A stretch of 64,000 nucleotides of DNA from Streptomyces sp. 846.5 (GTDB lineage Bacteria > Actinomycetota > Actinomycetes > Streptomycetales > Streptomycetaceae): NCBI RefSeq assembly GCF_004365705.1, contig NZ_SOBN01000001.1, forward strand, positions 1,938,555 to 2,002,554. Reading direction: 5' to 3'. The notes beneath the pieces were generated by a model. The model had not been told where the DNA came from. It was given only the letters and a program-made list of their open reading frames with translations, and did no database searches. Shown here piece by piece: positions 43,350-64,000 of the stretch. A program made the translations under genes and the position numbers. Each line of letters begins with the position of its first letter. Within the stretch, counting starts at the first letter, position 1.

Positions 43350-44618
43350 TTATGCCGGGTCCTGCCGTCTGCCCGGCCTGGGCCTGGTCATGTCCCGGTA
43401 CAGGTGCTCCAATTGGTTGATTTGGGCCGAGCCGCGTTCGGTGCGGCTGATCAGGTCCCGGTTGGCCAGGCGTTGGGCCCGGGGCAGTGGGGTGGCGGCG
43501 GTGAGGGCATCGGCCAAGGTGGCGGGCAGCGGGTCGGGGAGCAGGTCGGCGTGCAGGCCGTCGGCTACCAGTTCCCGGTATGGAGGGATGTCCCCGAGGA
43601 GCAGGCGGCAGCCCGCTGCTGCCGCCTCCAGGACTGAGGAGCTGCGCTGGTCGGCGTGGGGCACCGAGACTGCGACCTGGCTGGCGCGCATCAGGGCGAA
43701 CAATTCGGCTTGGCCGAGGAGGTGATCGATCACTGTGATGCGGTCGGCGAGAAGCGCTGTACCGCGGCGCAGCGTCGCCTGGTAGTGCTGTTGTGCGCGG
43801 GCTGGACCGGGTTGGGCGGGCCGGTGGCCGGCGAGGAGTACGAGGTGCAGGTCGGGTCGCTCCTGTGCGGCGTGGGCGAAGGCGTCGAGGATCTCCTGTG
43901 TTCGGTAGACCTGTGAGCTACTGCGGATCGACAGCACGACGGTGGAGTCGGCGGTGATGCCGAATCTGGCGCGTGTCTGCCGGGGATCGGCGCCGTCGTT
44001 GCTGTCGAGGAGGATGTCGGGCACGCCCCAGGACAGGACGGTGATCCGGGAGGGGGTGATCCGGTAGCAGTTCGCGACCTTCGCGGCGACTTCCCGTGAG
44101 GTGGGCAGGACCTGGTCGGCGCGGCGCAGGGCGAGTCGGGCAACCAGGGCGCGGCCTGGATGGTGGTCGGCGGCGCGCAGTTCCGAGCCCCAGGGTGTGA
44201 CCAGGACGCGCGTCGTACGGATCGGCAGTGCCAGGGACAGCGCCCCGTGTACACCGAGCGAATGGACGTGGATGACGTCCGGCCGAGTGCGGCGCACCTC
44301 GCGGCGCAGCCAGCCGGCCGCGCGGAGCACCCGCCACGGCCACCGGGCTCCGACTGCGGGTGCGCACGAGAGACGCCAGGCCTCAGTACCCCTGTCCGGG
44401 CCCGGATCGTGCCAACTGCACACCGTCACCGTGTGCCCGAGCGCCGCCAGAGCGTCTGCCCAGCGGCGGGTGTGGGCCGATGTGGCCGGGGCGAGGAGCA
44501 GCAGGCGCAGTGGCGGGGTGGAGGAGCGGGGCGTGCCCGGCTGCCCGGGAGCGGGGTCAGGGTCAGGGTTGGGCACGGCGTTCCCCGAGTACGAATCGGC
44601 TCTTGGCGGCTGCGGCAC
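43350..44618 (-). CDS. GT4-type glycosyltransferase
   Basis: The 422-residue enzyme has a GT-B fold: an N-terminal Rossmann half with LRLLLLAPATSAHTRRWADA and DVIHVHSLGVHG, and a C-terminal nucleotide-sugar half with SIRSSSQVYRTQEILDAF and QRSSSVLEAAAAGCRLLLGD, the GT4 E-x7-E-like region. It would add one sugar to a lipid-linked repeat unit at the inner face of the membrane. GTG 44618 lies inside the upstream gene (56-base overlap); a later GTG is possible, since the first ~36 residues are a Pro-rich extension. Confidence 0.85.
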   Translation of the reverse strand: MPQPPRADSYSGNAVPNPDPDPAPGQPGTPRSSTPPLRLLLLAPATSAHTRRWADALAALGHTVTVCSWHDPGPDRGTEAWRLSCAPAVGARWPWRVLRAAGWLRREVRRTRPDVIHVHSLGVHGALSLALPIRTTRVLVTPWGSELRAADHHPGRALVARLALRRADQVLPTSREVAAKVANCYRITPSRITVLSWGVPDILLDSNDGADPRQTRARFGITADSTVVLSIRSSSQVYRTQEILDAFAHAAQERPDLHLVLLAGHRPAQPGPARAQQHYQATLRRGTALLADRITVIDHLLGQAELFALMRASQVAVSVPHADQRSSSVLEAAAAGCRLLLGDIPPYRELVADGLHADLLPDPLPATLADALTAATPLPRAQRLANRDLISRTERGSAQINQLEHLYRDMTRPRPGRRQDPA

Positions 44619-45552
44619 GCAACCGCCGCACGGGGCCGTGGGTGTAGTGCTCCCAGCCGGCGGCTGCTGTCAGCCAGCGCGGGTCTGCGAGGAGCCGACC
44701 GGTTGCGGTCAGCAGGGAGACGTGCAGGCAGTGGTAGGCCAGGCTGGCCGGGGCGTGGTGCCGCAGGTCGTAGCGGGTCCAGTAGCCCAGGTCGAAGGCG
44801 GTCAGGGATTCGCGGATGCGGTCCGCTGCCGGTGCGGCGCGATCGCCGCCGAGTTGACGGCTCAGTTCGTGCAGGCCGAACAGCGCGAAGACGGCGCCGT
44901 TGAGGATGTGGCTGGCCGGATCGGAGGGGCATTCCTCGGGAAACGGCCGGCCGTGTTCGTCGTAGTGCGAGCAGCCGCCCGCCTCCAGCGGCCGCAGCAT
45001 GAGTTCCGTCGCGCCTTGGCAGGCGTCGAGGTAGGAGTGCTGCCCGGTAGCGGCGTATCCCCGCAGCATTACCGACGCCGCGAGGCCTTGGGCCATCGCC
45101 GAGTACCAGCCCGGGGTCACCCCGTAGCGTGGCACGGGGACCGGGTACCGCCAGCCGCCGTTGCCGTCCTGGGTGGCGCGCAGCCAGTCGGCCTGGTTGA
45201 GCAGGGCTTGAACGTCCGGTGGGTGGTCGGTCGGGGCGTGGGGGTACCAGCCGGTGCTTCGGGCCTCGGTGTGCCGGGCCAGTGCGTAAAGGCTCATCGA
45301 GACGGGGTTGTGGTAGAGGTCGCCGGTTGCCGCTTGGGTGAGGACCAGCCCCGCGCGGTCCAGGACGGTCCGGGCGGTCATCGGTCGCAGGTCGAGTGGA
45401 TAGCGGTCCGGGGGGCCGGCAGCCGGTGGGTGGGGGGCCGGTGGGTGGATGGGTGGTCTCACGTCGACGGGGAAGCTGGGCCTTCGCAGATCGGCCAGTC
45501 CTGTGCGCAGGAGCGTGCCTGGCCCTGGCCGGGTCTTCGCCTGGCCGGTCAC
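44563..45552 (-). CDS. D-glucuronyl C5-epimerase-like protein
   Basis: This 329-residue protein matches the D-glucuronyl C5-epimerase C-terminal domain almost block by block: GGWRYPVP, TPGWYSAMAQGLAASVMLRG, EAGGC, FPEECPSDPASHILNGAVFA, LFGLHEL, then YDLRHHAPASLAYHCLHVSL. Family members convert D-glucuronate to L-iduronate in heparan-type polymers. Here the substrate would be a uronic-acid residue of the polysaccharide made by this cluster. There is no signal peptide, unlike Golgi enzymes, so it may act on a lipid-linked or precursor form. Its start overlaps the glycosyltransferase stop (ATGA). Confidence 0.85.
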   Translation of the reverse strand: MTGQAKTRPGPGTLLRTGLADLRRPSFPVDVRPPIHPPAPHPPAAGPPDRYPLDLRPMTARTVLDRAGLVLTQAATGDLYHNPVSMSLYALARHTEARSTGWYPHAPTDHPPDVQALLNQADWLRATQDGNGGWRYPVPVPRYGVTPGWYSAMAQGLAASVMLRGYAATGQHSYLDACQGATELMLRPLEAGGCSHYDEHGRPFPEECPSDPASHILNGAVFALFGLHELSRQLGGDRAAPAADRIRESLTAFDLGYWTRYDLRHHAPASLAYHCLHVSLLTATGRLLADPRWLTAAAGWEHYTHGPVRRLRAAAAKSRFVLGERRAQP

Positions 45553-46769
45553 GCGGGGCCCCGGCGCGACTGGCCGCGGCGCCGGCGTGCCGCGAGTGCC
45601 TGGTGGTAGAGGTCGTTCACCTGGTCGACGGTGCGGGTGATGTCGAACTGGCGGAGCGCGAGTTCCCGCCCGCGGGCTGCCAGTTCGCGGCGTCCGACCG
45701 GATCGGCGACCAGCGCGGCCACGGCCTGTGCGAGTGCGGCCGGGTCGGCGGGCGGGACCAGCAGTCCGGTGCGTTCGTGCTGGACGGTGTCCGGCAGGCC
45801 GCCGACGTTGGTGGCGACCACTCCTTTGAGCATGAGTAGTGCCTCCACCACGGTGTAGCAGGCTGATTCGTCCATGGATGGGTTGACCAGCACGTCCAGG
45901 CCGGCCATGACTGAACCGATGTCGGTGCGAAGGCCGGTGAACCGGATCCGGTCGGCAACTCCGAGGCGGGCGGCGCGTTCCTCCAACTGGTGCCGGTAGT
46001 GGCCGTCTCCGATCAGTTCGTCACCGACGATGAAGAACGTCGCGCTGGGATGGCGGCGCAGGACCAGCGGTACGGCGTCGATGAAGACTTCGTGTCCTTT
46101 CACGCCGATCTGTCGGAAGTCGCGGAAGTTGCTGGGGTACATGTAGGCGACCATGCCGATCGCGGGAGTGGCTTCGGTGATCGCGAATTCGGTGCGGAAC
46201 GGCTGTGCGGGCGTGGCGGGGTCGAATCGCTGCACGTCGCAGCCGTAGTAACTGACCTCGACAGCCCGTGCGCCCATGGCCCGGTAGCGAGTGGCGATCG
46301 CCCGGCACGAGCCTAGTACGAGGTCGTCCCGGCGCAGGGAGAGCCGGTCCAGGATCCGAAAGGGTGCCATGCGCAGGTGGACCAGGCCCGGCACTTGGGA
46401 GACCATCAGCGCGCGTCGGTGGCAGGCGGTGGCGGCCCGCGCGGCCAGCATCGCGATGATCAGATGTGCGTGGACGACGTCCGGCCGATAGTGCCTGACG
46501 AACCGGGTGAGCTGCCACTGTCCGCGGATGAGGCTCGGCCATTGCCGTGGGTGGCGGGAGAGACCGAACGCGATGATCTTCACCTGGACGCCGTCGATAG
46601 CGCGCAACCGGTCTGCGAGCGGGCCCTCGCGTGGCAGCACCGCGCAGACCTGGTTCCCCAACCGGGCCAGGCCGTGGACCTGGTCGTGGAACCAGCTTCC
46701 GCCGACAGCGGTCGAGGTGATCTGAAGGATCCGCAGCGGCTGCGGCTTTCCGGTCATGGGCGCGTTCAC
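45549..46769 (-). CDS. GT4 glycosyltransferase
   Basis: The 406-residue GT-B enzyme opens with LRILQITSTAVGGSWFHDQV and shows DVVHAHLIIAM, SQVPGLVHLRMAPF, RFTGLRTDIGSVMAGLDVLV, then NPSMDESACYTVVEALLM and GLPDTVQHERTGLLVPP. That is a complete GT4 acceptor/donor set with the E-x7-E region. It belongs to the four-gene minus-strand operon with the C5-epimerase and the flippase-polymerase, all joined by 4-base overlaps. GTG 46769 is coupled to the upstream stop; ATG 46757 is an alternative. Confidence 0.93.
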   Translation of the reverse strand: MNAPMTGKPQPLRILQITSTAVGGSWFHDQVHGLARLGNQVCAVLPREGPLADRLRAIDGVQVKIIAFGLSRHPRQWPSLIRGQWQLTRFVRHYRPDVVHAHLIIAMLAARAATACHRRALMVSQVPGLVHLRMAPFRILDRLSLRRDDLVLGSCRAIATRYRAMGARAVEVSYYGCDVQRFDPATPAQPFRTEFAITEATPAIGMVAYMYPSNFRDFRQIGVKGHEVFIDAVPLVLRRHPSATFFIVGDELIGDGHYRHQLEERAARLGVADRIRFTGLRTDIGSVMAGLDVLVNPSMDESACYTVVEALLMLKGVVATNVGGLPDTVQHERTGLLVPPADPAALAQAVAALVADPVGRRELAARGRELALRQFDITRTVDQVNDLYHQALAARRRRGQSRRGPA

Positions 46770-49510: not shown

Positions 49511-49580
49511 GTGGAAACGCCCTCCGAATTCATCAGCGAGCACAACACGACGATTCAACCACGCACGGTAGCTTTCCAAG

Positions 49581-49598
49581 CACGCACAGTGGTGCGTG
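49581..49598. promoter_or_regulatory. Inverted repeat CACGCAC-N4-GTGCGTG between divergent EPS operons
   Basis: A perfect 7-base inverted repeat lies in the 141-base gap between the flippase-polymerase and epimerase starts. It is a candidate operator for co-regulation of both operons. Confidence 0.45.
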
Positions 49599-49651
49599 TT
49601 CACGGGCGCCACCCTTCCGGTGCCCGCTGCACTACGTCGAGAGGGTCGGCC

Positions 49652-50767
49652 GTGAAGGTGGTCAGCGTCGTTGGCGCGCGTCCGCAGTTCGTCAAACTTG
49701 CACCAATCGCCCGGCAGTTGGCCCTGCGCTGCGACGAGCACGTGATCGTCCACACGGGCCAGCACTACCACCCGCTGCTCTCCCAGTCCTTCTTCAGCGA
49801 ACTGCGCATCCCGCCACCTGACGTGAACCTGGAAGCCGGCTCGGCCGAACCTGCGGCACAGACGGGCGAGATGCTCACCCGACTGGACCCGCTGCTCGCG
49901 CGGACGCGACCGGACTGGGTGCTGACCTACGGCGACACCACTTCCACCCTCGCCGCAACCTTGGCGTCCGCCGCACAGAACCTGCCGATCGCGCACGTGG
50001 AATCGGGCCTGCGGTCCTTCGACCGCACGATGCCCGAGGAACGCAACCGGATCGTGGCCGACCATCTGGCCGACCTGCTCCTGGCGCCCACTGCGGCGGC
50101 GATGGCGAACCTGGCAGCCGAAGGCCTGGCCGCCCGCGCCGTGCTCACCGGTGACCTGATGGTGGACGCGCTTCGCACCGTTACCGACCCCTCGTCCGGG
50201 CCCCCCGCAGCACTGCCCCCGTTCCTCGCCGACCACCGGGGCCCCTATCTGCTCGCGACCGTGCACCGCCAGGCCACCACCGACGACCCCGAACGGCTGT
50301 CGGCCGTGGTCGCCGCCCTCACTGCCTGTCCGCACCCGGTCTGGCTGCTGGTCCACCCCCGACTCGCCGCCCGCTGCCGCCAGTTCGGCATCGACCTCGA
50401 CGGCGGCTCACTGCGCGCCGCCGACCCACTGCCGTACCCCGCCATGATCGCCGCGCTGGCCGCGGCTGCCGGGCTCGTCACCGACTCCGGGGGCCTGCAG
50501 AAGGAGGCGCTCGCCCTCGGCGTCGCCTGCACCACCCTGCGCGCCGAGACAGAGTGGCCGGAAACCCTGGTCGACGGCTGGAACGTCCTGGTCCCCGACC
50601 CCCGGGAGCTGCCCGCGGCCGTGGCCAGGACCCGCCCGACCGGGAGGCCACCCAGCCCGTTCGGCGACGGCCGCGCCGCCGCCGCAATCGTCACGGAGCT
50701 GGCGTCGCGGGCCCGCCCAGCAGCCGGGCCCGCGAAGGCGCACACCCGCGCGAGCGTGACGGCATGA
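49652..50767 (+). CDS. wecB: UDP-N-acetylglucosamine 2-epimerase (non-hydrolysing)
   Basis: The 371-residue enzyme starts at GTG 49652 (GAGAGGG upstream); the long open frame extending to 47081 is only antisense to the flippase-polymerase. VVSVVGARPQFVKLAPIARQ, HTGQHYHP, LTYGDTTSTLA, HVESGLRSFDRTMPEERNR and DSGGLQKEALALG match WecB/WbpI enzymes that interconvert UDP-GlcNAc-type and UDP-ManNAc-type sugars. The usual THR-x-EN motif is TVHRQATT here. In this cluster it may act on UDP-GlcNAc itself or on the 2,3-diacetamido uronic acid form. Confidence 0.92.
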   Translation: MKVVSVVGARPQFVKLAPIARQLALRCDEHVIVHTGQHYHPLLSQSFFSELRIPPPDVNLEAGSAEPAAQTGEMLTRLDPLLARTRPDWVLTYGDTTSTLAATLASAAQNLPIAHVESGLRSFDRTMPEERNRIVADHLADLLLAPTAAAMANLAAEGLAARAVLTGDLMVDALRTVTDPSSGPPAALPPFLADHRGPYLLATVHRQATTDDPERLSAVVAALTACPHPVWLLVHPRLAARCRQFGIDLDGGSLRAADPLPYPAMIAALAAAAGLVTDSGGLQKEALALGVACTTLRAETEWPETLVDGWNVLVPDPRELPAAVARTRPTGRPPSPFGDGRAAAAIVTELASRARPAAGPAKAHTRASVTA

Positions 50768-52077
50768 AGATCTGGATCTTCAACCACTACGCGGCGCCCC
50801 CGGACTGCGCGGCCGGCACCCGGCACTACGACCTCGGCCGGGCGCTGGTCTCGGCAGGACACGAGATCACCGTGTTCGCCAGCAGCTTCAACCACTTCAG
50901 CAGACGCGAGGAGCGGCTCGCCCCCGGCCGGAACACGGCCGTCCGCGATGTCGACGGCGTCCGGTTCCTGTGGGTCCGCACCCTCCCGTACACCGGCAAC
51001 GGATACCGCCGGTTCCTCAACATGTGCAGCTACGCCGTACGCGTACTGCCCGCCCAGCGGGACCTGGACCGGCCCGACGTCATCGTCGGCTCCAGCGTCC
51101 ACCCCGCCGCGGTACTCGCCGCCTGGCTCGCCTCGCGTCGCCGTGGCGCCCGCTTCGTCGTCGAGGTACGCGATCTGTGGCCGCAGACCCTGATCGACAT
51201 GGGCGTGCTGCGCGCAGGCGGAATCCCCGCCCGGGTGCTGCGGCTGGCCGAGTCGTTCTGCTACCGGCGCGCGTCCGCGGTGATCTGCCTGCTGCCAGGG
51301 GCGGCCGCCTATCTCAGGGCCCGCGGCGTCGCGCCCGACCGGATCCACTACGTGCCCAACGGCATCAGCGACCTTCCCCCCGCCGCCGATGACGATCCGT
51401 CGCTCCCGCCGAACCTTCGCGAGCACGCGCCGCACGTCACCGAACTGATCGACCGGATCAGGGGCCTGCGCGCACAAGGATGCCTCACCGCCGGATACGT
51501 CGGCTCGCACGGCCCCGCCAATGCCCTCGACACCATCGTCGCCGCCGCGGCCCGGCTGCACGACGCCGGGCGGCCGCCGGTCGTCGCCGTGCTGGTCGGT
51601 GACGGGCCGCAGAAAGCCGCCTGCCGCAGGCTCGCGGACGAACTGGGCGTCGACAACGTGCTGTTCTGGCCCCCCGTGCCGAAGAGCGCTGTTCCGGCCG
51701 TGCTGGCCGAACTGGACGTGACGCTGTTCTGCCTGCGCGACGTCGCGGTCTTCCGCTACGGCCTGAGCAGCAACAAACTGTTCGACTACCTGGCCTGCGG
51801 CAAGCCCGTGCTGTTCGCCAGCAACGCCCCGGGCGGACCGGTGCGTGAGTCCGGCGGCGGGATGTGCGTACCGGCCGAGTCGCCGGCCGCCATCGCCGAA
51901 GCACTGACCGCGCTGGCCGCGATGAGCGAGCACGAGCGCGAGACGATCGGGCAGCGCGGCCGCACCTGGGTCTACCGGCACCACGGAACGACCGCCCTGG
52001 CCATGGCATTCCTCGCCGCGGTCGGTCAACCGGCCGCGGCCGGCCCGACGAACGCCAAGGCGGAGGCACCGCGGTGA
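50764..52077 (+). CDS. GT4 glycosyltransferase, WbuB-like
   Basis: This 437-residue enzyme starts at ATG 50764, overlapping the epimerase stop. MKIWIFNHYAAPPDCAAGTR is the characteristic start of WbuB-type transferases that add N-acetyl-fucosamine-like sugars. ARFVVEVRDLWPQTLIDMGV, VLVGDGPQKAACRRLADELG, YGLSSNKLFDYLACGKPVLF and GPVRESGGGMCVP complete the pattern. It probably adds an amino sugar to the lipid-linked unit. The tail overlaps the acetyltransferase start. Confidence 0.93.
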   Translation: MKIWIFNHYAAPPDCAAGTRHYDLGRALVSAGHEITVFASSFNHFSRREERLAPGRNTAVRDVDGVRFLWVRTLPYTGNGYRRFLNMCSYAVRVLPAQRDLDRPDVIVGSSVHPAAVLAAWLASRRRGARFVVEVRDLWPQTLIDMGVLRAGGIPARVLRLAESFCYRRASAVICLLPGAAAYLRARGVAPDRIHYVPNGISDLPPAADDDPSLPPNLREHAPHVTELIDRIRGLRAQGCLTAGYVGSHGPANALDTIVAAAARLHDAGRPPVVAVLVGDGPQKAACRRLADELGVDNVLFWPPVPKSAVPAVLAELDVTLFCLRDVAVFRYGLSSNKLFDYLACGKPVLFASNAPGGPVRESGGGMCVPAESPAAIAEALTALAAMSEHERETIGQRGRTWVYRHHGTTALAMAFLAAVGQPAAAGPTNAKAEAPR

Positions 52078-52685
52078 CACTCCATATCGTGGGTGCGGGC
52101 GGATTCGGCCGTGAGACGCTGGACGCCGTACGGCGGTCGGCGACGACGCCAGAGGTGGTCTTCGTCGACGAACACCCGGCCGCCACGCAGGTGAACGGCT
52201 GCCCGGTCCTGCAGCCGGACCGCCTGCACCTGGCGGTACCGGACCAGCACGAGTTCGTGGTCGCGATCGCCGACCCCGCGGTACGGCGCCGGCTTGCCGA
52301 CCGGTTCGAGGACCGGGGCGTGCGGCCGGCGACCGTGATCGACCCATCGGCCGTGGTCTCCGCCGGGGCCACGATCGGGCCGGGCTGCGTGGTACTGGGC
52401 CAGGCATTCGTCTCCACCGGCACCGTCCTGGGCGCCCACGTCCAGGTCAACTACCACGCCAGCGTCGGTCATGACACGGTGCTGGAGGACTTCGTGACGA
52501 TTCTTCCGGGAGCCAACATCGCCGGCAGCGTGACCATCGGCGCAGCGTCAACGGTCGGCACCAACGCCGCGGTCCTCCAAGGCCGGCGGATCGGCCCGCG
52601 CGCGACCGTCGGCGCCGCGGCGCTGGTGACCCGCGATGTGGCCGCCGGTCACCTCGTCATCGGCCTGCCCGCCCGACCACGTTGA
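52074..52685 (+). CDS. NeuD/PglD-family sugar O/N-acetyltransferase
   Basis: The 203-residue protein starts at GTG 52074 (GGAGG upstream, GTGA overlap). An N-terminal Rossmann-like half (LHIVGAGGFGRETLDAVRRS) precedes a left-handed beta-helix of hexapeptide repeats (TIGPGCVVLGQAFVSTGTVL, ASTVGTNAAVLQGRRIGPRA, VTRDVAAGHLVIGLPAR). This is the NeuD/PglD architecture. PglD acetylates the 4-amino group of UDP-sugars to finish UDP-diacetamido-bacillosamine, and the partner dehydratase and aminotransferase are in the cluster. Confidence 0.92.
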   Translation: MTLHIVGAGGFGRETLDAVRRSATTPEVVFVDEHPAATQVNGCPVLQPDRLHLAVPDQHEFVVAIADPAVRRRLADRFEDRGVRPATVIDPSAVVSAGATIGPGCVVLGQAFVSTGTVLGAHVQVNYHASVGHDTVLEDFVTILPGANIAGSVTIGAASTVGTNAAVLQGRRIGPRATVGAAALVTRDVAAGHLVIGLPARPR

Positions 52686-52735
52686 CCCGCCTGCGCACCC
52701 GCCGCGGGCCGCCCACCGGTCCGCCGGCGTCCGGG

Positions 52736-54061: not shown

Positions 54062-55233
54062 CAAAACCACCGCCGTGATCCCGCAGCCGGCACGTAACCC
54101 GCCACCAGCATCGGCAGGGCCGCGGCCGGTGACTGCCCCGCGCCGAGCAGGGCCGCGGCTCGATCCGCGCCCGGCGGCGCCGGGACCAGGGCCGCAGCCC
54201 GGACCGAAGCGGGCCGGGCCGCGTCCACCGGGGCGGTGGCGGCCGGCACCTCGACCATGGCCGCCGGGTGCGTCAGAATCGCCGCTGTCACGTCCATCAC
54301 CTCCGCACCTGCCTGCATCGGCACCACGTCGCCCGCTCCAGCCGCGTGTCCTCGCACGGCGGCCACGAATCCCTCCAGTTCCGCCACCAGCGGCTCCGGT
54401 CCCACCGGCTCGAACCGGTCGGCGCGGCTGCCCGGCAGTGGCACCCGCCCACCGCGGCCCGGCATGGCCCCGCTCTGTTCGTGGCCGTAGAACCACAACG
54501 TTCCGTTGAGCAAGTCGCCACGCAGGCAGCCGAGTTCCCCCGTCACGGTGATCTGCCGCCGCTTGACCGGGGAGAGCCAGTTGACCAGGTGGTTGACCAC
54601 CGTGCCGTCCTGCAGGACGCCGACCACCGCGGCCAGGTCCTCATGGCCGCTGGCACCGGCCACCTGGCTGGTCACCGCCGACACCTTCACGTACGGCGCC
54701 CCGGCGATCCACCGGGTCAGATCGATGTCGTGGCTGGCCAGGTCCAAGATCACCCCGACGTCGCGGATCCGCCGCGGGTACGGCCCCTGGCGGCTCGTGG
54801 TGATCTGCAGCACCGTGCCGACCTCACCGGTACCGATCCGCTCCCGCAGGGCACGCACCACCGGGTTGAACCGCTCGATGTGCCCGACACAGCCGACCAG
54901 AGCAGCTCGCTCGAAGTCCGCCGCCAGCATGCGAGCCTCGTCCGCGCTGGCCGCCAGCGGCTTCTCGATCAGCGTGTGCACCCCCGCCGCGGCCAGGCGG
55001 CTGCCGATGGCCGCATGCATCAGCGTGGGCGCGGCCACCACGCACAGGTCCAGATCCAACTCCAACAACCGGTCCAGATCCGGAAAAACCGGCACGCCGC
55101 CCACCATCGGGCCGGCACCCGGATCCGGATCGCAGGCCCCGACCAGGCGCACACCCGCCAGCGCGGACAGGACCCGGGCGTGGTGCCGCCCCATGCTGCC
55201 CAGTCCGACCACCCCGGCCCGCAGTACGCTCAT
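54061..55233 (-). CDS. Gfo/Idh/MocA oxidoreductase (WbpB/WlbA-like)
   Basis: The 390-residue dehydrogenase has the Rossmann start RAGVVGLGSMGRHHARVLSA, the EKPLA strand-turn (VHTLIEKPLAASADE) and the HDIDLTRW helix of the family. The C-terminal ~70 residues are an Ala/Pro extension. In WbpA/B/E/D pathways the corresponding enzyme oxidises C3 of UDP-GlcNAcA to the 3-keto sugar, which an aminotransferase then converts. It sits directly between the 6-dehydrogenase and an aminotransferase gene, the same gene order as in those pathways. Confidence 0.88.
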   Translation of the reverse strand: MSVLRAGVVGLGSMGRHHARVLSALAGVRLVGACDPDPGAGPMVGGVPVFPDLDRLLELDLDLCVVAAPTLMHAAIGSRLAAAGVHTLIEKPLAASADEARMLAADFERAALVGCVGHIERFNPVVRALRERIGTGEVGTVLQITTSRQGPYPRRIRDVGVILDLASHDIDLTRWIAGAPYVKVSAVTSQVAGASGHEDLAAVVGVLQDGTVVNHLVNWLSPVKRRQITVTGELGCLRGDLLNGTLWFYGHEQSGAMPGRGGRVPLPGSRADRFEPVGPEPLVAELEGFVAAVRGHAAGAGDVVPMQAGAEVMDVTAAILTHPAAMVEVPAATAPVDAARPASVRAAALVPAPPGADRAAALLGAGQSPAAALPMLVAGYVPAAGSRRWF

Positions 55234-56471
55234 CGCTCACCGGCCAGTTCCGGCACGTCCACGGCCTGCGGCGACGGAAGCGCCCCCGCGAGCGAGCGGC
55301 CCAGCGGAGGGGCGCCGGCTGGCGCTGCCGTAGTTCCCGGCACCGTGGTCGCCCGGCCGACCGCGGCGATCACCGCATCCGCGATCTCAGCCACCTCCGC
55401 CTCGGTCAGCCGGTGGTGCACCGGGAGGGACACCATCGCCTCCGCGACAGCCTCGGTGACCGGCAGCACGGGCCGCACCCCCAAGGCGTGGGCGCCGCAC
55501 GCGCCGTCGGCGAAGACCGGTTGCCGGTGCACCGGCGGGAAATAGATCCGCGCCTCGATGCCCCGGCTGAGCAGGTCGGCCAGCACCTGGTCCCGGATGC
55601 CCGGAAGCAGACACGTGTACAGCAACCAGGTGCCTTGCACTTGGGGGGCCCGGTACGGTGTCGCCAGGCCTGCCAGCCCGGAAAGCCGCCGGGTCAGCGA
55701 TCCCGCGATCACCCGCTTCCGCTCCAGGATTCCGTCCAGTCGGCGCAGTTGGACCCGGCCGATCGCGGCCTGCATCTCCGTCAGGCGCCAGTTGTGGCCA
55801 AGACTCTCGTGCCGGTACAGCCGGGTCTGGCCGTGGTTGCGCAGCAGCATCAGCCGCTCGGCGATGCCCGGATCGTCGGTCAGCACGATGCCGCCCTCTC
55901 CGGTGGTGATGTTCTTGGTCGGCGTGAAGCTGAACATGGCCGAGCGGCCGAAGGTACCCACCGGCCGGTCCCGGTACCCGGCGCCGGCCGCCTGCGCGGC
56001 GTCCTCCAGCAGCACGACGCCACGCTCGGCGCACACCTGCGCCAGCGCGTCCAGGTCGCCGGGTTGTCCGCCGTAGTGCACGGTCAGCACGGCCCGGGTC
56101 GCGGGGGTGATCCGGGCCGCGACCGACACCGGGTCCAGGTTGAACGTGCGCGGGTCGATGTCGGCGAACACCGGAGTGGCCCCGACATGCCGCACCGCGG
56201 TCGCGGTGGCGATGAACGTCATCGACGGAACGATCACCTCGTCACCGGGGCCGATGCCCTCGGCGAGCAGCATCGCGGCCAGCGCGCACGTCCCGGTGCA
56301 GAAGGTCACGCCGAACCCCGCCTGGTGCCGGTCGGCGAACTCCCGTCCGAAGGCCTCGTTCTCCGGGCCGTTGGTCAGCGTGCCGCTGCGCAACACCCGG
56401 CGCACGGCATCCAGTTCCTCCTCGCCGAGTTCGGGGCGGCTGAGCCGGATTCGGACGTCGTTGTCAGGCAT
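55230..56471 (-). CDS. DegT/DnrJ/EryC1 sugar aminotransferase
   Basis: This 413-residue PLP enzyme starts at ATG 56471 (AGAGGA upstream; an earlier frame is unlikely). VPSMTFIATATAVRHVGATP, Asp157 in LLEDAAQAAGAG, the PLP-binding Lys186 in FTPTKNITTGEGGI and NHGQTRLYRHESLGHNWRLT identify the family. It overlaps the initiating transferase gene and lies one gene away from the 4,6-dehydratase, so it may aminate the 4-keto sugar (PglE-like) or the 3-keto uronic acid (WbpE-like). A second enzyme of this family is fused at 62004. Confidence 0.92.
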   Translation of the reverse strand: MPDNDVRIRLSRPELGEEELDAVRRVLRSGTLTNGPENEAFGREFADRHQAGFGVTFCTGTCALAAMLLAEGIGPGDEVIVPSMTFIATATAVRHVGATPVFADIDPRTFNLDPVSVAARITPATRAVLTVHYGGQPGDLDALAQVCAERGVVLLEDAAQAAGAGYRDRPVGTFGRSAMFSFTPTKNITTGEGGIVLTDDPGIAERLMLLRNHGQTRLYRHESLGHNWRLTEMQAAIGRVQLRRLDGILERKRVIAGSLTRRLSGLAGLATPYRAPQVQGTWLLYTCLLPGIRDQVLADLLSRGIEARIYFPPVHRQPVFADGACGAHALGVRPVLPVTEAVAEAMVSLPVHHRLTEAEVAEIADAVIAAVGRATTVPGTTAAPAGAPPLGRSLAGALPSPQAVDVPELAGER

Positions 56472-57126
56472 CTGAGTGCATCCTCTCTGGTCTGCGGGCA
56501 ATGGGATCGGCGTCGTGGCTGACGGTCGTACCGCCATGGGCCAGCACCGCCCAGACGGTGAGCAGCAAGATGGTCAGATCGAGCCGCAGGCTCTGATGGC
56601 GCACGTAGCGCAGATCCCATTCGATCCGCTCCGGCCAGCCCAGCTGCTGCCGGCCGTGCACCTGCGCCAGCCCGGTCAGGCCGGGCACGGCCCGCAGCCG
56701 CTCCCGCTGCCGATCCGTGTACCGGCGCACCTGGTAGGGAAGCGTGGGCCGCGGCCCGATCAGGCTCATCTCCCCCCGCAGCACGTTCAGCAGCTGTGGC
56801 AGCTCGTCCAGGGACAGGCGGCGCAGCACCCGGCCGACCGTGGTCACCTGAGCGAGGTCACCGCCGTCGGGCAGGCCGGGCTCGCCCACGACGTTCCCTA
56901 TGGTGCGCAGTTTCCACAGCATGAAGGGGCGGCCGTCGTGGCCGACCCGCTGCTGGCGGAACAACGCCGGCCTGCCGTGCGCGAGCAGGTGCGCCGCCGC
57001 CGCGGCCGCGCACAGCACAGCGGCCGGCACCACGATCAGACACACCACGACCAGGTCCAGTAACCGCTTGCCGCGGTAGGGCGAGGCAAGCGCCACGTGC
57101 TGCTCGGGCACGGTCGGGGCGATCAC
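56464..57126 (-). CDS. Initiating polyprenyl-phosphate sugar-1-phosphate transferase
   Basis: The 220-residue bacterial sugar transferase has one hydrophobic segment (LLDLVVVCLIVVPAAVLCAA) after the KR motif of the reentrant helix, then HGRPALFRQQRVGHDGRPF, LRRLSLDELPQLLNVLRGE and MSLIGPRPTLPYQVRRY. That is the conserved core of PglC/WcaJ-type enzymes. It is short and PglC-like (about 200 residues), so it probably transfers a HexNAc-type sugar phosphate to undecaprenyl phosphate to begin the repeat unit. GTG 57126 overlaps the dehydratase stop. Confidence 0.95.
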   Translation of the reverse strand: MIAPTVPEQHVALASPYRGKRLLDLVVVCLIVVPAAVLCAAAAAAHLLAHGRPALFRQQRVGHDGRPFMLWKLRTIGNVVGEPGLPDGGDLAQVTTVGRVLRRLSLDELPQLLNVLRGEMSLIGPRPTLPYQVRRYTDRQRERLRAVPGLTGLAQVHGRQQLGWPERIEWDLRYVRHQSLRLDLTILLLTVWAVLAHGGTTVSHDADPIARRPERMHSDA

Positions 57127-58934
57127 CGGCCGACCCCTGTTCGTCCGGGCGACGGCGCGGAAAGCGGCGAGGGAATCGAAGCGGTGGCGGCTGCGCCGGC
57201 CAGGGCCGCGCGCACTGTGTCGGGGTCGGCCAATGCGTCCAGCCCGGTCACCTCAGCAGGCTCCAGCGGTGGCACCGGTACCTGCCTGACCAGCGGATGG
57301 CGCGGCCGGTGGTCCGCTTCCCCGGCTCCGAGCAGATCCTCGGTCAGCTTCTCGCCCGGTCTCAGCCCGGTGAACACGATCTCCACCCGGTGCGACGCCG
57401 CCGCCGCCATCCGGCGTGCCAGATCGGCGATCCGAATCTGCTCCCCCATGTCCAGCACGAGCACCTCACCGCTGCGGCCGACGGCCACGGCTTGGAGCGT
57501 GAGCTGCACGGCCTCGGTGGCTGTCATGAAGTACCGGGCGACCTGCGGATGCGTCACCGTGACCGGGCCGCCCGCAGCGATCTGCGCGGACAGTGAGCCG
57601 AGCAGCGAACCCCGGCTGCCCAGCACATTCCCGAACCTGACGGAGACCCAGGTCCCCGGCGCCGGGCCGGCTCGGTGCGCGGTGAGCCGTTCGGCGATCC
57701 GCTTCGACGTGCCGAGGACGCTCACCGGGTCCGCGGCCTTGTCGGTGGAGATGTTGACGAACGACCGGACACCGTGGGCGGCGGCCGCCTCCAGCACGTT
57801 CAGCGTGCCGATCACGTTCGTCTTCAGCGCCTCGCCGGGGTACCGCTCCAGCAGCGGCAGATGCTTAACCGCCGCCGCATGGAACACGATCTCCGGCCGC
57901 GCGTGGGCGAAGACCTCCTGGATCCTTGCAGCGTCCCTGATATCAGCGAGCACGGTCTCGTCGGAGTCGAGCAGTGCGCGGCCGTGCAGGGCGAGTTGGA
58001 CTGCATGCAGAGCCGATTCGTCCCGGTCCAGCATCACCAGTGACGCCGGGCCCAGCCGGTGCAACTGGCGGCACAGCTCCGCCCCGATCGAACCTCCGGC
58101 ACCGGTGACCAGGATCCGGCGCCCGGCGAAGTGCGCGGCCGCCGACGTCAGATCCAGGCAGACCTCCTCGCGGCCCAGCAGGTGCGTGATGCGCGGGTCG
58201 CGGACCCCGTCGATCCGCGCGGAACCGGTGACCAGTTCGTCGATCGGGGGGATCACCTTGGCGATCAGACCTGCCGCTTCGGCGGCTGTCACCAGCTCCC
58301 TGATGAGCCGTCCGTCACCGCGGCCACCGGCGATCGCGACCACCATGACTGTGGCCCCGGTCTCGGCGGCCACCTCGGCGATCCGCTCCCGGCCGCCGCG
58401 TACCGGCACGCCGCAGACCCGCAGCCGGCGTTTGCCGGGATCGTCGTCCAACAGGGCCATGGGCCGATACCGGGCGCCGCGTTGACTGATCAGCCGGTGC
58501 ACCAGCTGCGTGCCCGCGCTGCCGGCACCGAACACAATCACTTTGACCGCAGCCGGCGCGGGCCGCTTCGGCCTGCGCCGGACGGCCGCGATCGTGGACC
58601 GCTCAGTGATCATCCCCAGCACGCCGACCACGGCCGCGATCAGGGCCTCGGCCGGCCTGCCGCCCACCAGCGGGAGCCGCGGGACACTCACCATGACGAT
58701 TCCGGCGAGCGCACCGGAAGCCGCCACCGCGCCCAACTCCGCGCCGCTCCCGGGCTGGAACCGACCGGAGTACAACCCGCACACAGCGCCGGCCAGGACC
58801 GCGACCACGCAGGTGGCGACGCAGGCGACACCCAGATCGCCGGGGGCGGCGAGCAGACCGGCACCGCCCCTCAGGGCCAGTCCGGCAATCAACAGGCCAC
58901 CGGCCCAAGCGGTGGCATCAGCAGCGCCGCGCAC
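57123..58934 (-). CDS. Membrane-bound NDP-sugar 4,6-dehydratase (CapD/PglF/WbpM type)
   Basis: The 603-residue protein starts at GTG 58934, with GAGGG six bases upstream; codons farther up have low third-position GC. Four membrane segments come first (WAGGLLIAGLALRGG, VACVATCVVAVLAGAVCGL, then two more), followed by a cofactor-linked Rossmann region (VKVIVFGAGSAGTQLVHRL) and the catalytic SDR domain (ILVTGAGGSIGAELCRQLHR, FVNISTDKAADPVSVLGTSK, FGNVLGSRGSLL). Long enzymes of this family make UDP-4-keto-6-deoxy-GlcNAc. It supplies the aminotransferase and NeuD/PglD-like acetyltransferase of the cluster. Confidence 0.95.
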   Translation of the reverse strand: MRGAADATAWAGGLLIAGLALRGGAGLLAAPGDLGVACVATCVVAVLAGAVCGLYSGRFQPGSGAELGAVAASGALAGIVMVSVPRLPLVGGRPAEALIAAVVGVLGMITERSTIAAVRRRPKRPAPAAVKVIVFGAGSAGTQLVHRLISQRGARYRPMALLDDDPGKRRLRVCGVPVRGGRERIAEVAAETGATVMVVAIAGGRGDGRLIRELVTAAEAAGLIAKVIPPIDELVTGSARIDGVRDPRITHLLGREEVCLDLTSAAAHFAGRRILVTGAGGSIGAELCRQLHRLGPASLVMLDRDESALHAVQLALHGRALLDSDETVLADIRDAARIQEVFAHARPEIVFHAAAVKHLPLLERYPGEALKTNVIGTLNVLEAAAAHGVRSFVNISTDKAADPVSVLGTSKRIAERLTAHRAGPAPGTWVSVRFGNVLGSRGSLLGSLSAQIAAGGPVTVTHPQVARYFMTATEAVQLTLQAVAVGRSGEVLVLDMGEQIRIADLARRMAAAASHRVEIVFTGLRPGEKLTEDLLGAGEADHRPRHPLVRQVPVPPLEPAEVTGLDALADPDTVRAALAGAAATASIPSPLSAPSPGRTGVGR

Positions 58935-59813
58935 CGCGCGCCCTCGGCATCGTGCGGCAAGGCGTGTCAGCCCGCCATTACTGGCGCAATCACCTTTCAA
59001 CTGTCCCGCGCATCCTTCGCTTTCCGCGGGTGTCCCTGTGGACACCGTGCTCGCGATGCATACACATTCGTGATGCGTAATCGAACGACTACGCGTCGCT
59101 CCCAGAGCATAGGAGCGGCGAACACCGGTCCCGGCGCAACCAGGACGCGTCCGGCGCGCTGCTCGGATCCGCCCCACCCACCGACCGGAGCCGGCGAGCC
59201 GCGCCGAACCGGACGGCGAGAGCCACCCCGTTTCGACGGGCCGGCTTCCAATGGCGCTCGCCACCACGCGGAAAGCAGGGCCGAGTTGACCCTTCGTGTA
59301 TGCAAATATCCGCCGCGCGGAAGGCAATTCACTGTGGGACATCCCTCGGGACCCCATTCATGAAAGCCCTGAATTCGCCTGTGCCGCAGTGCAGTTGGGG
59401 ATGAGCAACAGCAGCCCGGACGGCTTCCGGACGCGCGGTTCAGCACGGTGGCCCGATCCGCACGGCCCGGTCGCCGACTGCTCCGTCGCGCGTCCGCGGC
59501 GAGCGGACGTCGACCGTCCGCCCACCGGACCGCAGACCCTTGAAAGTGCGAAATCCGACTCGCGTCCGGGCGACGACGCTAACCAAAAACGACCACTTCA
59601 CTGCGGCGATCTCTTTCCGACCGCACCCGCGCCGGCCCGTCTCGACTCGGCGGACTGCCATGGGGCGCTCAGTGATTATCCCCAAGCAATTCGGATATGA
59701 CGCGCGGCGGCGGGGCGACATGACGTCATCGCGCAGTCGTGTGCCTACTATTCATCACGTACACAGTCCGTGACCATGTGCGACGAAAAGCACGCCGGGA
59801 GGGCGAGAAAGAC
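58935..59813. other. Gene-free divergent control region of the EPS cluster
   Basis: These ~880 bases separate the dehydratase operon (minus) from the tyrosine-kinase operon (plus). Frames here have poor codon bias, and no protein family is recognisable. The length suggests complex regulation of the cluster. The last bases contain the GGGAGG site of the kinase gene. Confidence 0.5.
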
Positions 59814-61322
59814 ATGACGCTTCGGAGTTTCCTCGGACTGATCAAAGAACGCTGGAAGCTCGTCATCGTCGTAACACTCCTCGCCGCAGCGATGAGCGTC
59901 GTCGTGACCGAGCGAACCACCCGGATGTACGCCTCGAGTCTTTCCTTCTTCGTCTCCGCACAGACCGACTCGTCCAACGTCATCCAGGCCTACCAGGCCA
60001 ATCTGCTGTCTCAGCAGAAGGTTCAGTCGTACGCCAATCTGCTGACCGGCCACGTGCTCGCGGCGGCGGTCGTGCAGGCAACGGGACTGCCCATCTCCGC
60101 GGCCGAGTTGCAGTCGCGGATCTCCGCGCAGGCGGTGCCACAGACCGTGCTGCTGCGCGCCACCGTGACCAGCGGGTCACCGAGACAGGCGCAGCAGATC
60201 GGACGGGCGATCGCCGCGATCTTCCCAGATCAGATCAACAGTCTCGAACACACCGCCACCGGGAAGACCTCGACCGCGGTGGTCCAAGTGGTCGAGCCGC
60301 CCAGCTATTCGGCCGTGCCCGTCTCACCGAAACCGATCCGCAATGTGTCCGCCGGGCTCGCCCTGGGTCTGCTGGCCGGCCTGGCACTGGCCGCCGCCGC
60401 ACGCTCGCTCGACACGTCGCTGAAGACCTCGGACCAGGTCAGTCAGGTCCTCGGTGGCAAACCTGTGCTCGGGCTCATCCCGTACGACCCGGCCGCCCGC
60501 AACAACCCGCTGCTCAACGAGGACCAACTGGGCTGTGCGCGTATGGAGGCGTTCCGCAAGCTCCGGATCAGCTTCGGCTTCGTCGAGGTGGACAAGCCGC
60601 GCAAGGTCATCATGTTCACCAGCGCGGTGCCGAAGGACGGCAAGAGCACCACCGTCTGCAACCTCGGAATCGCGCTGGCCACCGTCGGCACCCGGACCGT
60701 CGTCGTCGACTGCGACATGCGGCGGCCCCAGGTCGGTCGATACCTCGGTCTGCCCAACGGGGCCGGCCTGACGGACGTGCTTCTCGACCGAGCACGTCTG
60801 GAGGACGTCGTCCAGAGCTGGGGCGACGACGGCCTCGACGTGCTGACGACCGGAATGCTGCCGCCCAACCCGGGCGATCTGCTGGGGTCGCGAAAAATGG
60901 AGCAGCTGATCGAGAATCTGCGGGCACGCTACGAGGTCGTGCTGCTGGACATGCCGCCCGTCCTGGCGCTCGCGGACGCGGCCGCGGCCGGCCAGTACTG
61001 CGACGGCGCGATCCTGGTGACCCGCCACGGCCGGACCAGAGCCGCACAGTTGCGCCGTGTCTGCGAATCGCTGACGTCCGCCGGCACCCCGGTTCTGGCC
61101 GGGGTACTGAACATGGTGCGCTCCCGCGACAACGGCGGCGGCCGGTACAACTACGGTTACGGCTACTACCAGGCCGACAAGGCCCAGCGGGACGGAGTCC
61201 GGGTGGGCGTGCACACCCAACCCGCCCGAGCCGATGCGGGGGCCCCGACGCAGCTCCCGCAGGACCTGGATCTTGCCGGGGGCCGCGCGCTGACGTCTGA
61301 CGCGGCACCGCCGGCAGTCTGA
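59814..61322 (+). CDS. Wzz-type chain-length regulator fused to BY-kinase
   Basis: The 502-residue protein starts at ATG 59814. Two membrane segments (about 16-32 and 178-196) enclose an outer Wzz domain. The cytoplasmic tyrosine kinase follows, with Walker A SAVPKDGKST (270-279), Walker A' VVVDCDM (296-302) and Walker B VLLDM (376-380). A tyrosine cluster RYNYGYGYY (444-452) is the likely autophosphorylation site. BY-kinases govern polymer length and export in Wzy pathways. The LMW phosphatase encoded next would reverse the phosphorylation. Confidence 0.95.
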   Translation: MTLRSFLGLIKERWKLVIVVTLLAAAMSVVVTERTTRMYASSLSFFVSAQTDSSNVIQAYQANLLSQQKVQSYANLLTGHVLAAAVVQATGLPISAAELQSRISAQAVPQTVLLRATVTSGSPRQAQQIGRAIAAIFPDQINSLEHTATGKTSTAVVQVVEPPSYSAVPVSPKPIRNVSAGLALGLLAGLALAAAARSLDTSLKTSDQVSQVLGGKPVLGLIPYDPAARNNPLLNEDQLGCARMEAFRKLRISFGFVEVDKPRKVIMFTSAVPKDGKSTTVCNLGIALATVGTRTVVVDCDMRRPQVGRYLGLPNGAGLTDVLLDRARLEDVVQSWGDDGLDVLTTGMLPPNPGDLLGSRKMEQLIENLRARYEVVLLDMPPVLALADAAAAGQYCDGAILVTRHGRTRAAQLRRVCESLTSAGTPVLAGVLNMVRSRDNGGGRYNYGYGYYQADKAQRDGVRVGVHTQPARADAGAPTQLPQDLDLAGGRALTSDAAPPAV

Positions 61323-61344
61323 GCTGACGGCGCACACGCCCCCG

Positions 61345-62007
61345 ATGAACACCTTCCAGCTCCGGTTTGTCTGCACCGCGAACTTGTGCCGGTCACCGCT
61401 GGCCGAGCGCATCGCGGTGCACCGCATGCCGCCGACCACGGCCACGCCGCCGTGGCTTGTGGTGACCAGCGCGGGCACCAACGCCCGCAACGGCATGCCG
61501 ATGCATCCACTGGCGGCGTGTCAGCTGACCGAAATCGGCGCCGATCCGGTCGGCTTCAGCAGTCGTCGCCTGACCGCCGCCATGGTGGCCGAGGACGACC
61601 TGGTGCTCACCGCCGACCTGGCGCAACGCGACGCCGTGGTCGCACTGTGCCCAGGAGCGTCCCGACGCACCTTCCTGATCGGCGAGTTCGCCCAACTGGC
61701 GGACCACCCTCAGGTGCCCGTCGACCGCTCCCTGCCACCAGCTGTCGGCGGTGCGCCGACCGAAACACCGGAAAGCCGGGCCCACGCCGCGCGGGCCCTG
61801 GTCGCGACGGCGGCCCGGTACCGGGGCCGGGTGCCCTGGCATGAACCGACCGTCGACGAGATCGCCGACCCGGACGGCAGCGAGGCCACCATGACCGCCT
61901 GCGCCGAGGAGATCGACCGCGCGGTGACCCGGATCATCCTCATCCTCGCCGGCGTGACGCCCACGCCGGCCCCCCTTCCGACGCGAGCAACGGATCAACG
62001 ATCATGA
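61345..62007 (+). CDS. Low-molecular-weight protein-tyrosine phosphatase
   Basis: The 220-residue enzyme has the P-loop [14 protein letters not shown], giving the catalytic Cys10 and Arg16 in CX5R, and the general acid Asp175-Pro176 in DEIADPDG. It is longer than the usual ~150 residues owing to an insert at ~120-160. Its position directly after the BY-kinase follows the Wza-Wzb-Wzc logic: it would dephosphorylate the kinase tyrosine cluster. The ribosome site before ATG 61345 is weak; its end overlaps the next gene. Confidence 0.9.
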
Positions 62008-63740: not shown

Positions 63741-63794
63741 AGACCTCGAACCACCCGGCTGAGCCCTCACCCCCCACCCACCGGTCCGGCGCGC

Positions 63795-64000
63795 TCACGA
63801 GCACCGGGCGGCGACCACCTGGGTGGTCTGCGGCCGCACAAGCGGCTGGACCGGAACCGCCGGGGACAGGGCCGAGGCCGGCTCGCGCAGATGAAGGTCC
63901 ATCTCCCGGGCCTGACCTGGAATCAGTTCGACCTGCGCGGACAGCAGGAGATGACTGCGCTCCACGCTCGGCGACATCAGCAGCGGGCGGCCGTCCAATT
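63795..64000 (-). CDS. C-terminal end of a protein entering from the right edge, possibly DUF4012-like
   Basis: The minus-strand frame is open from the window edge to the stop at 63795. It reads SVERSHLLLSAQVELIPGQA, MDLHLREPASALSP and VPVQPLVRPQTTQVV before ending in ARCS. A VPVQPLVRP-type ending is what I recall for streptomycete DUF4012 proteins found in exopolysaccharide clusters; the assignment is tentative because most of the protein lies outside. It is convergent with the fusion gene. Confidence 0.5.
   Translation of the reverse strand, partial: LDGRPLLMSPSVERSHLLLSAQVELIPGQAREMDLHLREPASALSPAVPVQPLVRPQTTQVVAARCS

What the first reader, a model, noticed from the sequence alone, without database searches (positions are those of the whole stretch)
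43350..64000. Exopolysaccharide cluster with genes for two diamino-sugar pathways
Seen directly: a CapD/PglF-type 4,6-dehydratase, two DegT aminotransferases (one fused to a hexapeptide acetyltransferase), a NeuD/PglD acetyltransferase, a UDP-HexNAc 6-dehydrogenase, a Gfo/Idh oxidoreductase and a UDP-GlcNAc 2-epimerase, together with PglC-like initiation, three GTs and Wzx/Wzy/Wzz/Wzb functions. From the known PglF-E-D and WbpA-B-E-D-I pathways, the set can be divided into one route to UDP-diacetamido-bacillosamine and one to UDP-2,3-diacetamido-mannuronic acid. A polymer combining both with an epimerised uronic acid would be unusual for an actinomycete. The split is inference.
Basis: partly seen in the sequence, partly recalled or inferred. 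Interest (0 to 1): 0.75.

Follow-up and report, generated by a model that had tools for sequence, protein, structure and literature searches.

The report
Two-diamino-sugar polysaccharide cluster, fused flippase-polymerase
A soil actinomycete carries a gene cluster for a surface sugar polymer that probably combines two rare diamino sugars; it also encodes a sugar flippase and polymerase fused into one protein, and an epimerase that may reshape one of the sugars.

Summary
In detail: 15 genes (43350-63740) encode a Wzx/Wzy-type polysaccharide pathway with two diamino-sugar gene sets. The split gains support: the Streptomyces humidus cluster lacks the 2-epimerase, 6-dehydrogenase, Gfo/Idh and HexDegT but keeps dehydratase, DegT1, NeuD and PglC-like transferase; a second, utr-like set lies elsewhere in that genome. 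The 2-epimerase has the Trp and Tyr of UDP-GlcNAc3NAcA enzymes. Corrections: ManNAc3NAcA is already NMR-proven in Streptomyces (PMC13274773); the Gfo/Idh is not WbpB-like; neither aminotransferase falls in the Gfo-linked clade, so which acts at C3 rests on context. Two things were not named. Wzx and Wzy form one 907-aa protein, intact in four other species (63-75% identity); in a 394-genome class sample no other genome gave one match over both halves (two candidates scored per genome). A GlcE-like C5-epimerase, apparently cytoplasmic, is in 5 of 5 clusters. In 396 genomes of the phylum, 26 of 31 with that family also have a high-scoring, mostly Trp-type 2-epimerase, against 16 of 365 without it, which suggests epimerisation of ManNAc3NAcA to L-GulNAc3NAcA. 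All chemistry is inferred.

The parts
43350..44618 (-). GT-A: GT4-type glycosyltransferase (start uncertain)
   Evidence: Glyco_transf_4 71.3 bits; orthologue in the 4 relative clusters
44563..45552 (-). C5epi: GlcE-like uronyl C5-epimerase, no hydrophobic segment that would suggest a signal or anchor
   Evidence: PF06662 114.7 bits; PDB 4pw2 82 bits; Foldseek top GlcE on a weak model; hydropathy
45549..46769 (-). GT-B: GT4-type glycosyltransferase
   Evidence: Glyco_trans_1_4 106.9 bits
46766..49489 (-). Wzx-Wzy fusion, 907 aa: flippase part about residues 1-397, Arg-rich variable linker about 398-447, polymerase part about 448-907
   Evidence: no internal stop in the window or the 4 relatives
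49652..50767 (+). UDP-GlcNAc3NAcA-type 2-epimerase (WbpI/utrH-like)
   Evidence: PDB 8sxv 272 bits against 131 for 1vgv (E. coli UDP-GlcNAc enzyme by recall); Tyr93 and Trp302
50764..52077 (+). GT-C: GT4-type glycosyltransferase
   Evidence: Glyco_trans_4_4 86.8 bits
52074..52685 (+). NeuD/PglD-type sugar N-acetyltransferase
   Evidence: TIGR03570 198.9 bits over cut-off; PDB 4m98 111 bits
52736..54055 (-). UDP-sugar 6-dehydrogenase (start uncertain, up to 54070)
   Evidence: TIGR03026 289 bits over cut-off; PDB 4r16 211 bits
54061..55233 (-). Gfo/Idh, likely sugar 3-dehydrogenase
55230..56471 (-). DegT1: sugar aminotransferase, likely C4 (PglE-like role)
56464..57126 (-). PglC-like monotopic phosphoglycosyl transferase
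   Evidence: PDB 8g1n 117 bits
57123..59357 (-). CapD/PglF-type 4,6-dehydratase (true start may be near 58934-59000)
   Evidence: PDB 5bju (WlaL protein; PglF by recall) 223 bits against 127 for the next type
59814..61322 (+). Wzz plus ATPase domain (Wzc-type co-polymerase)
   Evidence: AAA_31 32.1 bits over cut-off; Wzz 21.7 bits below cut-off; start
61345..62007 (+). Wzb-type low-molecular-weight phosphatase
   Evidence: LMWPc 56.6 bits
62004..63740 (+). HexDegT: hexapeptide acetyltransferase fused to DegT aminotransferase
   Evidence: Hexapep 63.3 and DegT 378.6 bits; 3mqg 145.5 bits for the acetyltransferase part

Best explanation
The cluster makes a surface polysaccharide by the Wzx/Wzy route. 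The dehydratase, DegT1 and NeuD make UDP-diacetamido-bacillosamine or a close 4-amino relative, which the PglC-like enzyme puts on the lipid carrier. The 6-dehydrogenase, Gfo/Idh, HexDegT and 2-epimerase make UDP-ManNAc3NAcA. Three glycosyltransferases complete a repeat of about four sugars. The cytoplasmic C5-epimerase converts the diamino-uronic residue of the lipid-linked unit to its L-gulo epimer. One fused Wzx-Wzy protein flips and polymerises the unit, under control of the Wzz-ATPase protein and Wzb. Shown here: gene content, conservation, fusion, residue signatures and co-occurrence. Inferred: every reaction, the sugar order, the cellular site and the substrate of the C5-epimerase.
For: S. 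humidus lacks the four genes of the second route in its cluster, and its genome has a single 2-epimerase match, beside its best Gfo and HexDegT matches, in a utr-like set elsewhere. DegT1's sister in G627 lies beside CapD, NeuD, PGT and a GT-C relative with no comparable Gfo in the 19 kb read. 2-epimerase residues and scores. PglF and PglC as best solved relatives. Fusion intact in the window and the 4 relatives, with linkers of different length. C5-epimerase in 5 of 5 clusters with four of the five GlcE residues kept (list from PMC13308652). PF06662 with a 2-epimerase of 255 bits or more in 26 of 31 genomes against 16 of 365, p 6e-25, or 8 of 12 families, p about 1e-4; such a gene 5-9 kb away in 7 of 37 other PF06662 loci read.
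Against: Neither aminotransferase sits in the Gfo-linked clade. 2-epimerase position 16 is Leu, not the Ala of the Thermus enzyme, although the utr-like enzymes read share Leu. GlcE's Tyr500 is Cys in all five. A locus with a distantly similar core (L204) has C5epi, GT-C, PGT, CapD and DegT but no ManNAc3NAcA genes in 17.7 kb. 30 of the 37 PF06662 loci read showed no such 2-epimerase nearby, some cut short by contig ends. The Kitasatospora cluster lacks NeuD and the hexapeptide domain. Six of the seven neighbouring loci are one family and have a hydrophobic N-terminus, unlike the window protein.
Confidence: 0.55

Rival explanations
1. Aminotransferase roles are swapped: DegT1, translationally coupled to the Gfo/Idh, makes the 3-amino sugar with NeuD, and HexDegT makes the 4-amino sugar.
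For: DegT1 and Gfo/Idh overlap by 4 bases; Gfo-linked DegT genes elsewhere are adjacent to their Gfo; DegT1 and HexDegT are equally close (both 42%) to the utrA-like protein of S. humidus.
Against: S. humidus keeps DegT1 with CapD, PGT and NeuD while Gfo and HexDegT are missing from the cluster; DegT1's sister is in a CapD-NeuD-PGT locus; HexDegT carries a domain nearest to 3mqg, and a hexapeptide gene lies directly upstream of 13 of the 21 Gfo-linked DegT genes.
Confidence: 0.2
2. The uronic acid is plain ManNAcA from a WecB/WecC-like pair, and Gfo plus HexDegT make a neutral 2,3-diacetamido glucose.
For: The 6-dehydrogenase is nearer to UDP-ManNAc dehydrogenases (229 bits, under cut-off) than to TviB (98 bits); best PDB relative 4r16 is named a UDP-ManNAcA dehydrogenase; the Gfo/Idh resembles a UDP-GlcNAc 3-dehydrogenase.
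Against: The 2-epimerase has Trp where UDP-GlcNAc enzymes have Arg (PMC10622841) and scores 272 bits to the UDP-GlcNAc3NAcA enzyme against 131; all four genes are absent together from the S. humidus cluster; the same enzyme types form the utr set whose S. griseus product is ManNAc3NAcA (PMC13274773).
Confidence: 0.12
3. The C5-epimerase acts on another uronic acid (for example GlcA to IdoA, as in heparan sulfate), and its link with ManNAc3NAcA genes is only shared lineage or polysaccharide richness.
For: GlcE is the family's namesake; L204 has it without ManNAc3NAcA genes at the locus; 20 of the 26 co-occurring genomes belong to three families, f23, f27 and f44.
Against: Family-level test still 8 of 12 (p about 1e-4); genomes whose only 2-epimerase matches score lower carry PF06662 in 4 of 131 cases against 26 of 42, and all 10 lower-scoring ones sampled are Arg-type; the only uronic acid route encoded in the window's cluster is this one.
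Confidence: 0.35
4. The Wzx-Wzy fusion is an assembly or frameshift artefact.
For: At the three other Wzx loci read (L003, L004, L007) Wzx and Wzy are separate genes.
Against: The window and four separate genome records have it without internal stop, with linkers of different length in frame.
Confidence: 0.01

Closest known systems
Pgl pathway of Campylobacter (PglF-PglE-PglD-PglC, diacetamido-bacillosamine)
   Same: PglF-like 4,6-dehydratase with hydrophobic segments, DegT aminotransferase, NeuD/PglD-type acetyltransferase, PglC-like transferase with SLDELPQ
   Different: Sits with Wzx/Wzy, not an oligosaccharyltransferase; acetyltransferase nearer to 4m98 and 4m9c (111 and 94 bits) than to PglD-type 3bss (46 bits)
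Wbp pathway of Pseudomonas aeruginosa (WbpA-B-E-D-I)
   Same: 6-dehydrogenase, Gfo/Idh, DegT, hexapeptide acetyltransferase and UDP-GlcNAc3NAcA-type 2-epimerase
   Different: Gfo/Idh of another subfamily and probably the 6-dehydrogenase too; acetyltransferase and aminotransferase fused; step order open
utr teichuronic acid cluster of Streptomyces griseus (PMC13274773)
   Same: Same five enzyme classes; product ManNAc3NAcA proven by NMR there
   Different: 41-59% identity to the utr-like set of S. humidus (S. griseus genes not compared); paper text has no Wzx (0 occurrences); polymer attached to wall teichoic acid
GlcE heparan sulfate C5-epimerase
   Same: PF06662 domain, four of five catalytic residues
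   Different: 329 aa, matched only to the C-terminal part of GlcE chains, no export signal seen; Cys for Tyr500; probably acts on a short lipid-linked unit (inference)
Agl32, archaeal C5-epimerase on an N-glycan tetrasaccharide (PMC13308652, abstract and section 6 read)
   Same: Short oligosaccharide substrate, single helical domain
   Different: Reported there to lack the GlcE residues, which the window protein mostly keeps
Separate Wzx and Wzy proteins
   Same: Polysacc_synt_3 and Wzy_C domains
   Different: One polypeptide here

Membership tests
Diacetamido-bacillosamine (Pgl) pathway | PglF-type dehydratase | tested here: met
   5bju (PglF by recall) 223 bits against 127 for the next type
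Diacetamido-bacillosamine (Pgl) pathway | 4-keto-specific aminotransferase | tested here: inconclusive
   DegT1 sister in CapD context (100/100), but 4ztc (PglE by recall) only 106 bits and PglE was not in the tree
Diacetamido-bacillosamine (Pgl) pathway | NeuD/PglD acetyltransferase | tested here: met
   TIGR03570 198.9 against 160.8
Diacetamido-bacillosamine (Pgl) pathway | PglC-type phosphoglycosyl transferase | tested here: met
   8g1n best, 117 bits
Diacetamido-bacillosamine (Pgl) pathway | Sugar product | not testable with these tools
   needs chemistry; the 4-epimer is not excluded
ManNAc3NAcA (Wbp/utr) pathway | WbpI-type 2-epimerase | tested here: met
   272 against 131 bits; Trp and Tyr met, Ala not
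ManNAc3NAcA (Wbp/utr) pathway | WbpD-type acetyltransferase | tested here: met
   3mqg (WlbB by recall) 145.5 bits, best for that domain
ManNAc3NAcA (Wbp/utr) pathway | WbpB/WlbA-type Gfo/Idh | tested here: not met
   3q2k 48 bits against 7bvj 116 bits; the works-like claim stands, the orthologue claim does not
ManNAc3NAcA (Wbp/utr) pathway | 3-keto aminotransferase of the Gfo-linked clade | tested here: not met
   HexDegT outside the 24-row clade
ManNAc3NAcA (Wbp/utr) pathway | UDP-sugar 6-dehydrogenase | tested here: met
   TIGR03026 289 against 189.8; WbpA subfamily not shown
GlcE / PF06662 C5-epimerase | Pfam cut-off | tested here: met
   114.7 against 23.3
GlcE / PF06662 C5-epimerase | Catalytic E499, Y500, N510, Y560, Y578 | tested here: inconclusive
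   E207, C208, N218, Y261, Y273 invariant in the window and 4 orthologues: four of five kept (positions carried over by alignment and spacing)
Wzx/Wzy-dependent pathway | Wzx, Wzy, co-polymerase, initiating transferase | tested here: met
   the Wzz model itself is below cut-off

The most novel reading that the evidence does not exclude
PF06662 proteins of Actinomycetota are largely not glucuronyl but 2,3-diacetamido-mannuronyl C5-epimerases that make L-GulNAc3NAcA, and in this cluster one works in the cytoplasm on the lipid-linked repeat, which a natural flippase-polymerase fusion then moves and polymerises as one machine.
Probability: 0.35. Interest if true: 0.78.

Novelty: new variant of a known kind. 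Interest (0 to 1): 0.55.

Why it matters
Flippase and polymerase are usually separate proteins; a natural fusion kept in five genomes makes their coupling directly testable. The epimerase link gives a candidate gene family for L-gulo diamino-uronic acids. A ManNAc3NAcA polymer is a receptor of Streptomyces umbrella toxins (PMC13274773, passages read), so such polymers matter in bacterial antagonism.

Tried and rejected
Structure prediction of the fusion gave pLDDT 36.5 and was not used. The C5-epimerase model is weak (54.9); its Foldseek match to GlcE (E 2e-5) agrees with sequence but adds little. Rejected: the idea that long open frames at other Wzx loci (889-961 aa) were further fusions; at the three read (L003, L004, L007) Wzx and Wzy are separate genes. 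Rejected: G799 as a second hexapeptide-DegT fusion; a stop codon separates the two. NCBIfam could not separate C3 from C4 aminotransferases; the best models (PseC, ArnB) stay below cut-off. The first automatic frame choice for the 2-epimerase signature failed in 20 of 40 stretches and was replaced by tblastn. The 255-bit line between high and lower 2-epimerases was chosen after seeing the list, and that search scored at most 5 candidates per genome, so misses are possible. My first family-level test counted one family twice; recomputed. Phrase searches for a Wzx-Wzy fusion showed no report of a natural one in the listings seen (12 of 36 papers listed; 2; 1, PMC3412221, not opened). Searches for a GulNAc3NAcA epimerase: 2 papers, one on Bordetella short-chain dehydrogenases for an L-galacto diamino-uronic acid, start of abstract seen; 15 of 152 listed; 20 of 388 listed; none of the titles listed names such an enzyme. 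That GulNAc3NAcA occurs in P. aeruginosa O antigens is recalled.


Full report
What is there. On the minus strand run GT-A, C5-epimerase, GT-B and a Wzx-Wzy protein; then on the plus strand 2-epimerase, GT-C and NeuD; then on the minus strand 6-dehydrogenase, Gfo/Idh, DegT1, PglC-like transferase and dehydratase; then on the plus strand Wzz-ATPase, Wzb and HexDegT. Of the 11 junctions between same-strand neighbours, 7 overlap by four bases (coordinates in parts). The window lies in a 9.03 Mb genome; the two closest named relatives of its Wzx-Wzy protein are Streptacidiphilus species, so it is probably from that group (inference).

Conservation. One scan of named bacterial genomes with the Wzx-Wzy protein found 24 pattern matches, of which 4 encode relatives: Streptacidiphilus pinicola, S. 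melanogenes, Streptomyces humidus and Kitasatospora sp. DSM 101779. I annotated 34-38 kb around each. Dehydratase, PglC-like, DegT1, GT-C, Wzx-Wzy, GT-B, C5-epimerase and GT-A are in 5 of 5 clusters, the window included. Wzc and Wzb relatives are also in 5 of 5, but in S. humidus they are only 35-37% alike and lie at the other end. The S. humidus cluster lacks the 2-epimerase, 6-dehydrogenase, Gfo/Idh and HexDegT. The Kitasatospora cluster lacks NeuD and the acetyltransferase half of HexDegT. The whole S. humidus genome has one 2-epimerase match, and its best Gfo and HexDegT matches lie within 12 kb of it, in a locus with a 6-dehydrogenase and a hexapeptide gene whose content fits the described utr cluster (PMC13274773 passages and section 9). 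That this locus is utr is inference from gene content; the S. griseus genes were not compared, and the 6-dehydrogenase was not searched genome-wide. So the four genes behave as one unit and may be replaced in trans.

First sugar. The dehydratase is closest to PDB 5bju (WlaL, PglF by recall; 223 bits against 127), the transferase to PglC (117 bits), the acetyltransferase to a pilin-glycosylation enzyme (4m98) and 4m9c. In a tree of 49 aminotransferases DegT1 and its four orthologues join (100/100) a protein of genome G627 whose locus has dehydratase 65%, GT-C 40%, NeuD 36% and PglC-like 52% and no Gfo of this type.

Second sugar. The 2-epimerase scores 272 bits to the Thermus UDP-GlcNAc3NAcA enzyme and 131 to 1vgv, the E. 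coli UDP-GlcNAc enzyme by recall. Of the three positions named in PMC10622841 (section 10 read) it has Tyr and Trp and keeps Leu for Ala; the utr-like enzymes read do the same. Among 30 sampled 2-epimerases of 255 bits or more, 29 have Trp and one Arg; among 10 lower-scoring ones none has Trp. HexDegT's acetyltransferase part is nearest to 3mqg. In 13 of 21 Gfo-linked loci a hexapeptide gene directly precedes the DegT, so HexDegT looks like that pair fused; but its aminotransferase is outside the Gfo-linked clade of 24 (94/88) and joins two others, one beside a 31% Gfo.

Wzx-Wzy fusion. The 907-aa ORF has no stop; flippase-like residues to about 397, an Arg-rich linker (11 Lys+Arg in 50 residues) and a Wzy_C part. 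All four relatives are single ORFs of 911-956 aa with linkers of different length. In 197 genomes of the order and 394 of the class, no match other than the window's own covers both halves; a few overreach the boundary, such as 12-495 in G627 and 10-467 in G592. These searches scored only the best 4 and 2 candidates per genome.

C5-epimerase. The protein is 320-329 aa in all five, without hydrophobic segment, so it probably works in the cytoplasm before flipping (inference). Of GlcE's residues E499, Y500, N510, Y560 and Y578 (list from PMC13308652 section 6) four are kept and Y500 is Cys. PF06662 is found in 31 of 396 sampled phylum genomes; 26 of these also have a 2-epimerase of 255 bits or more, which 42 of 396 have in all (the same handles appear, so I take it as the same sample). 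Of those 42 the residue was read in 37: Trp in 36; five were not read. Genome-level p is 6e-25, but relatives are not independent, and 20 of the 26 fall in three families. By family, 8 of 12 PF06662 families have both in one genome against 6 high-2-epimerase families among the rest, p 5e-5 to 1.1e-4 for 77 to 70 families (the number of families is taken from the labels). Of 43 other PF06662 matches I read 37 loci: in six of another class, all one family, a 2-epimerase lies 5-9 kb away (Trp read in five), with aminotransferase, acetyltransferase or a distant Gfo/Idh in view in four; in G014, of the window's family, it directly precedes a utrJ-like gene, with a utrH-like gene 5 kb on. The other 30 showed none nearby. 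Against this reading too, L204 has the epimerase with core genes like ours and no such sugar set.

Verdict. The two-route reading is probably right in outline; the second sugar is already known in Streptomyces. The new points are the conserved fusion and the epimerase link. All chemistry is inferred.

Noticed in passing
41824-43323: Transposase-like ORF (Mu-transpos_C_2, 30.6 bits) directly borders the cluster.
   Followed up: no
L079 (G000:C4:66000-85000): The same genome has a second polysaccharide locus with dehydratase, DegT, PglC-like gene and, as separate genes, a Wzx relative preceded by a Wzy-like gene, the opposite order to the fusion.
   Followed up: partly
L069 (G583:C21:134000-153999): S. 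humidus carries a utr-like ManNAc3NAcA locus; partly similar ones lie in S. melanogenes (L075) and S. pinicola (L078).
   Followed up: partly
L160 3425-5907: In G014 a PF06662 gene sits 114 bases upstream of a utrJ-like acetyltransferase in a utr-like cluster.
   Followed up: partly
L198 5130-18973: A cluster of another class of the phylum joins a PF06662 protein with hydrophobic N-terminus, PglC-like gene, Wzy_C protein, LytR-type protein and ManNAc3NAcA genes.
   Followed up: partly
L204 39-17579: Distantly similar core cluster with a pyruvyl transferase and FemAB-like gene, C5-epimerase but no ManNAc3NAcA genes.
   Followed up: partly
L076-L077: Kitasatospora cluster lacks both acetyltransferases; a relative of the hexapeptide domain (46%) lies elsewhere in the genome.
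   Followed up: no
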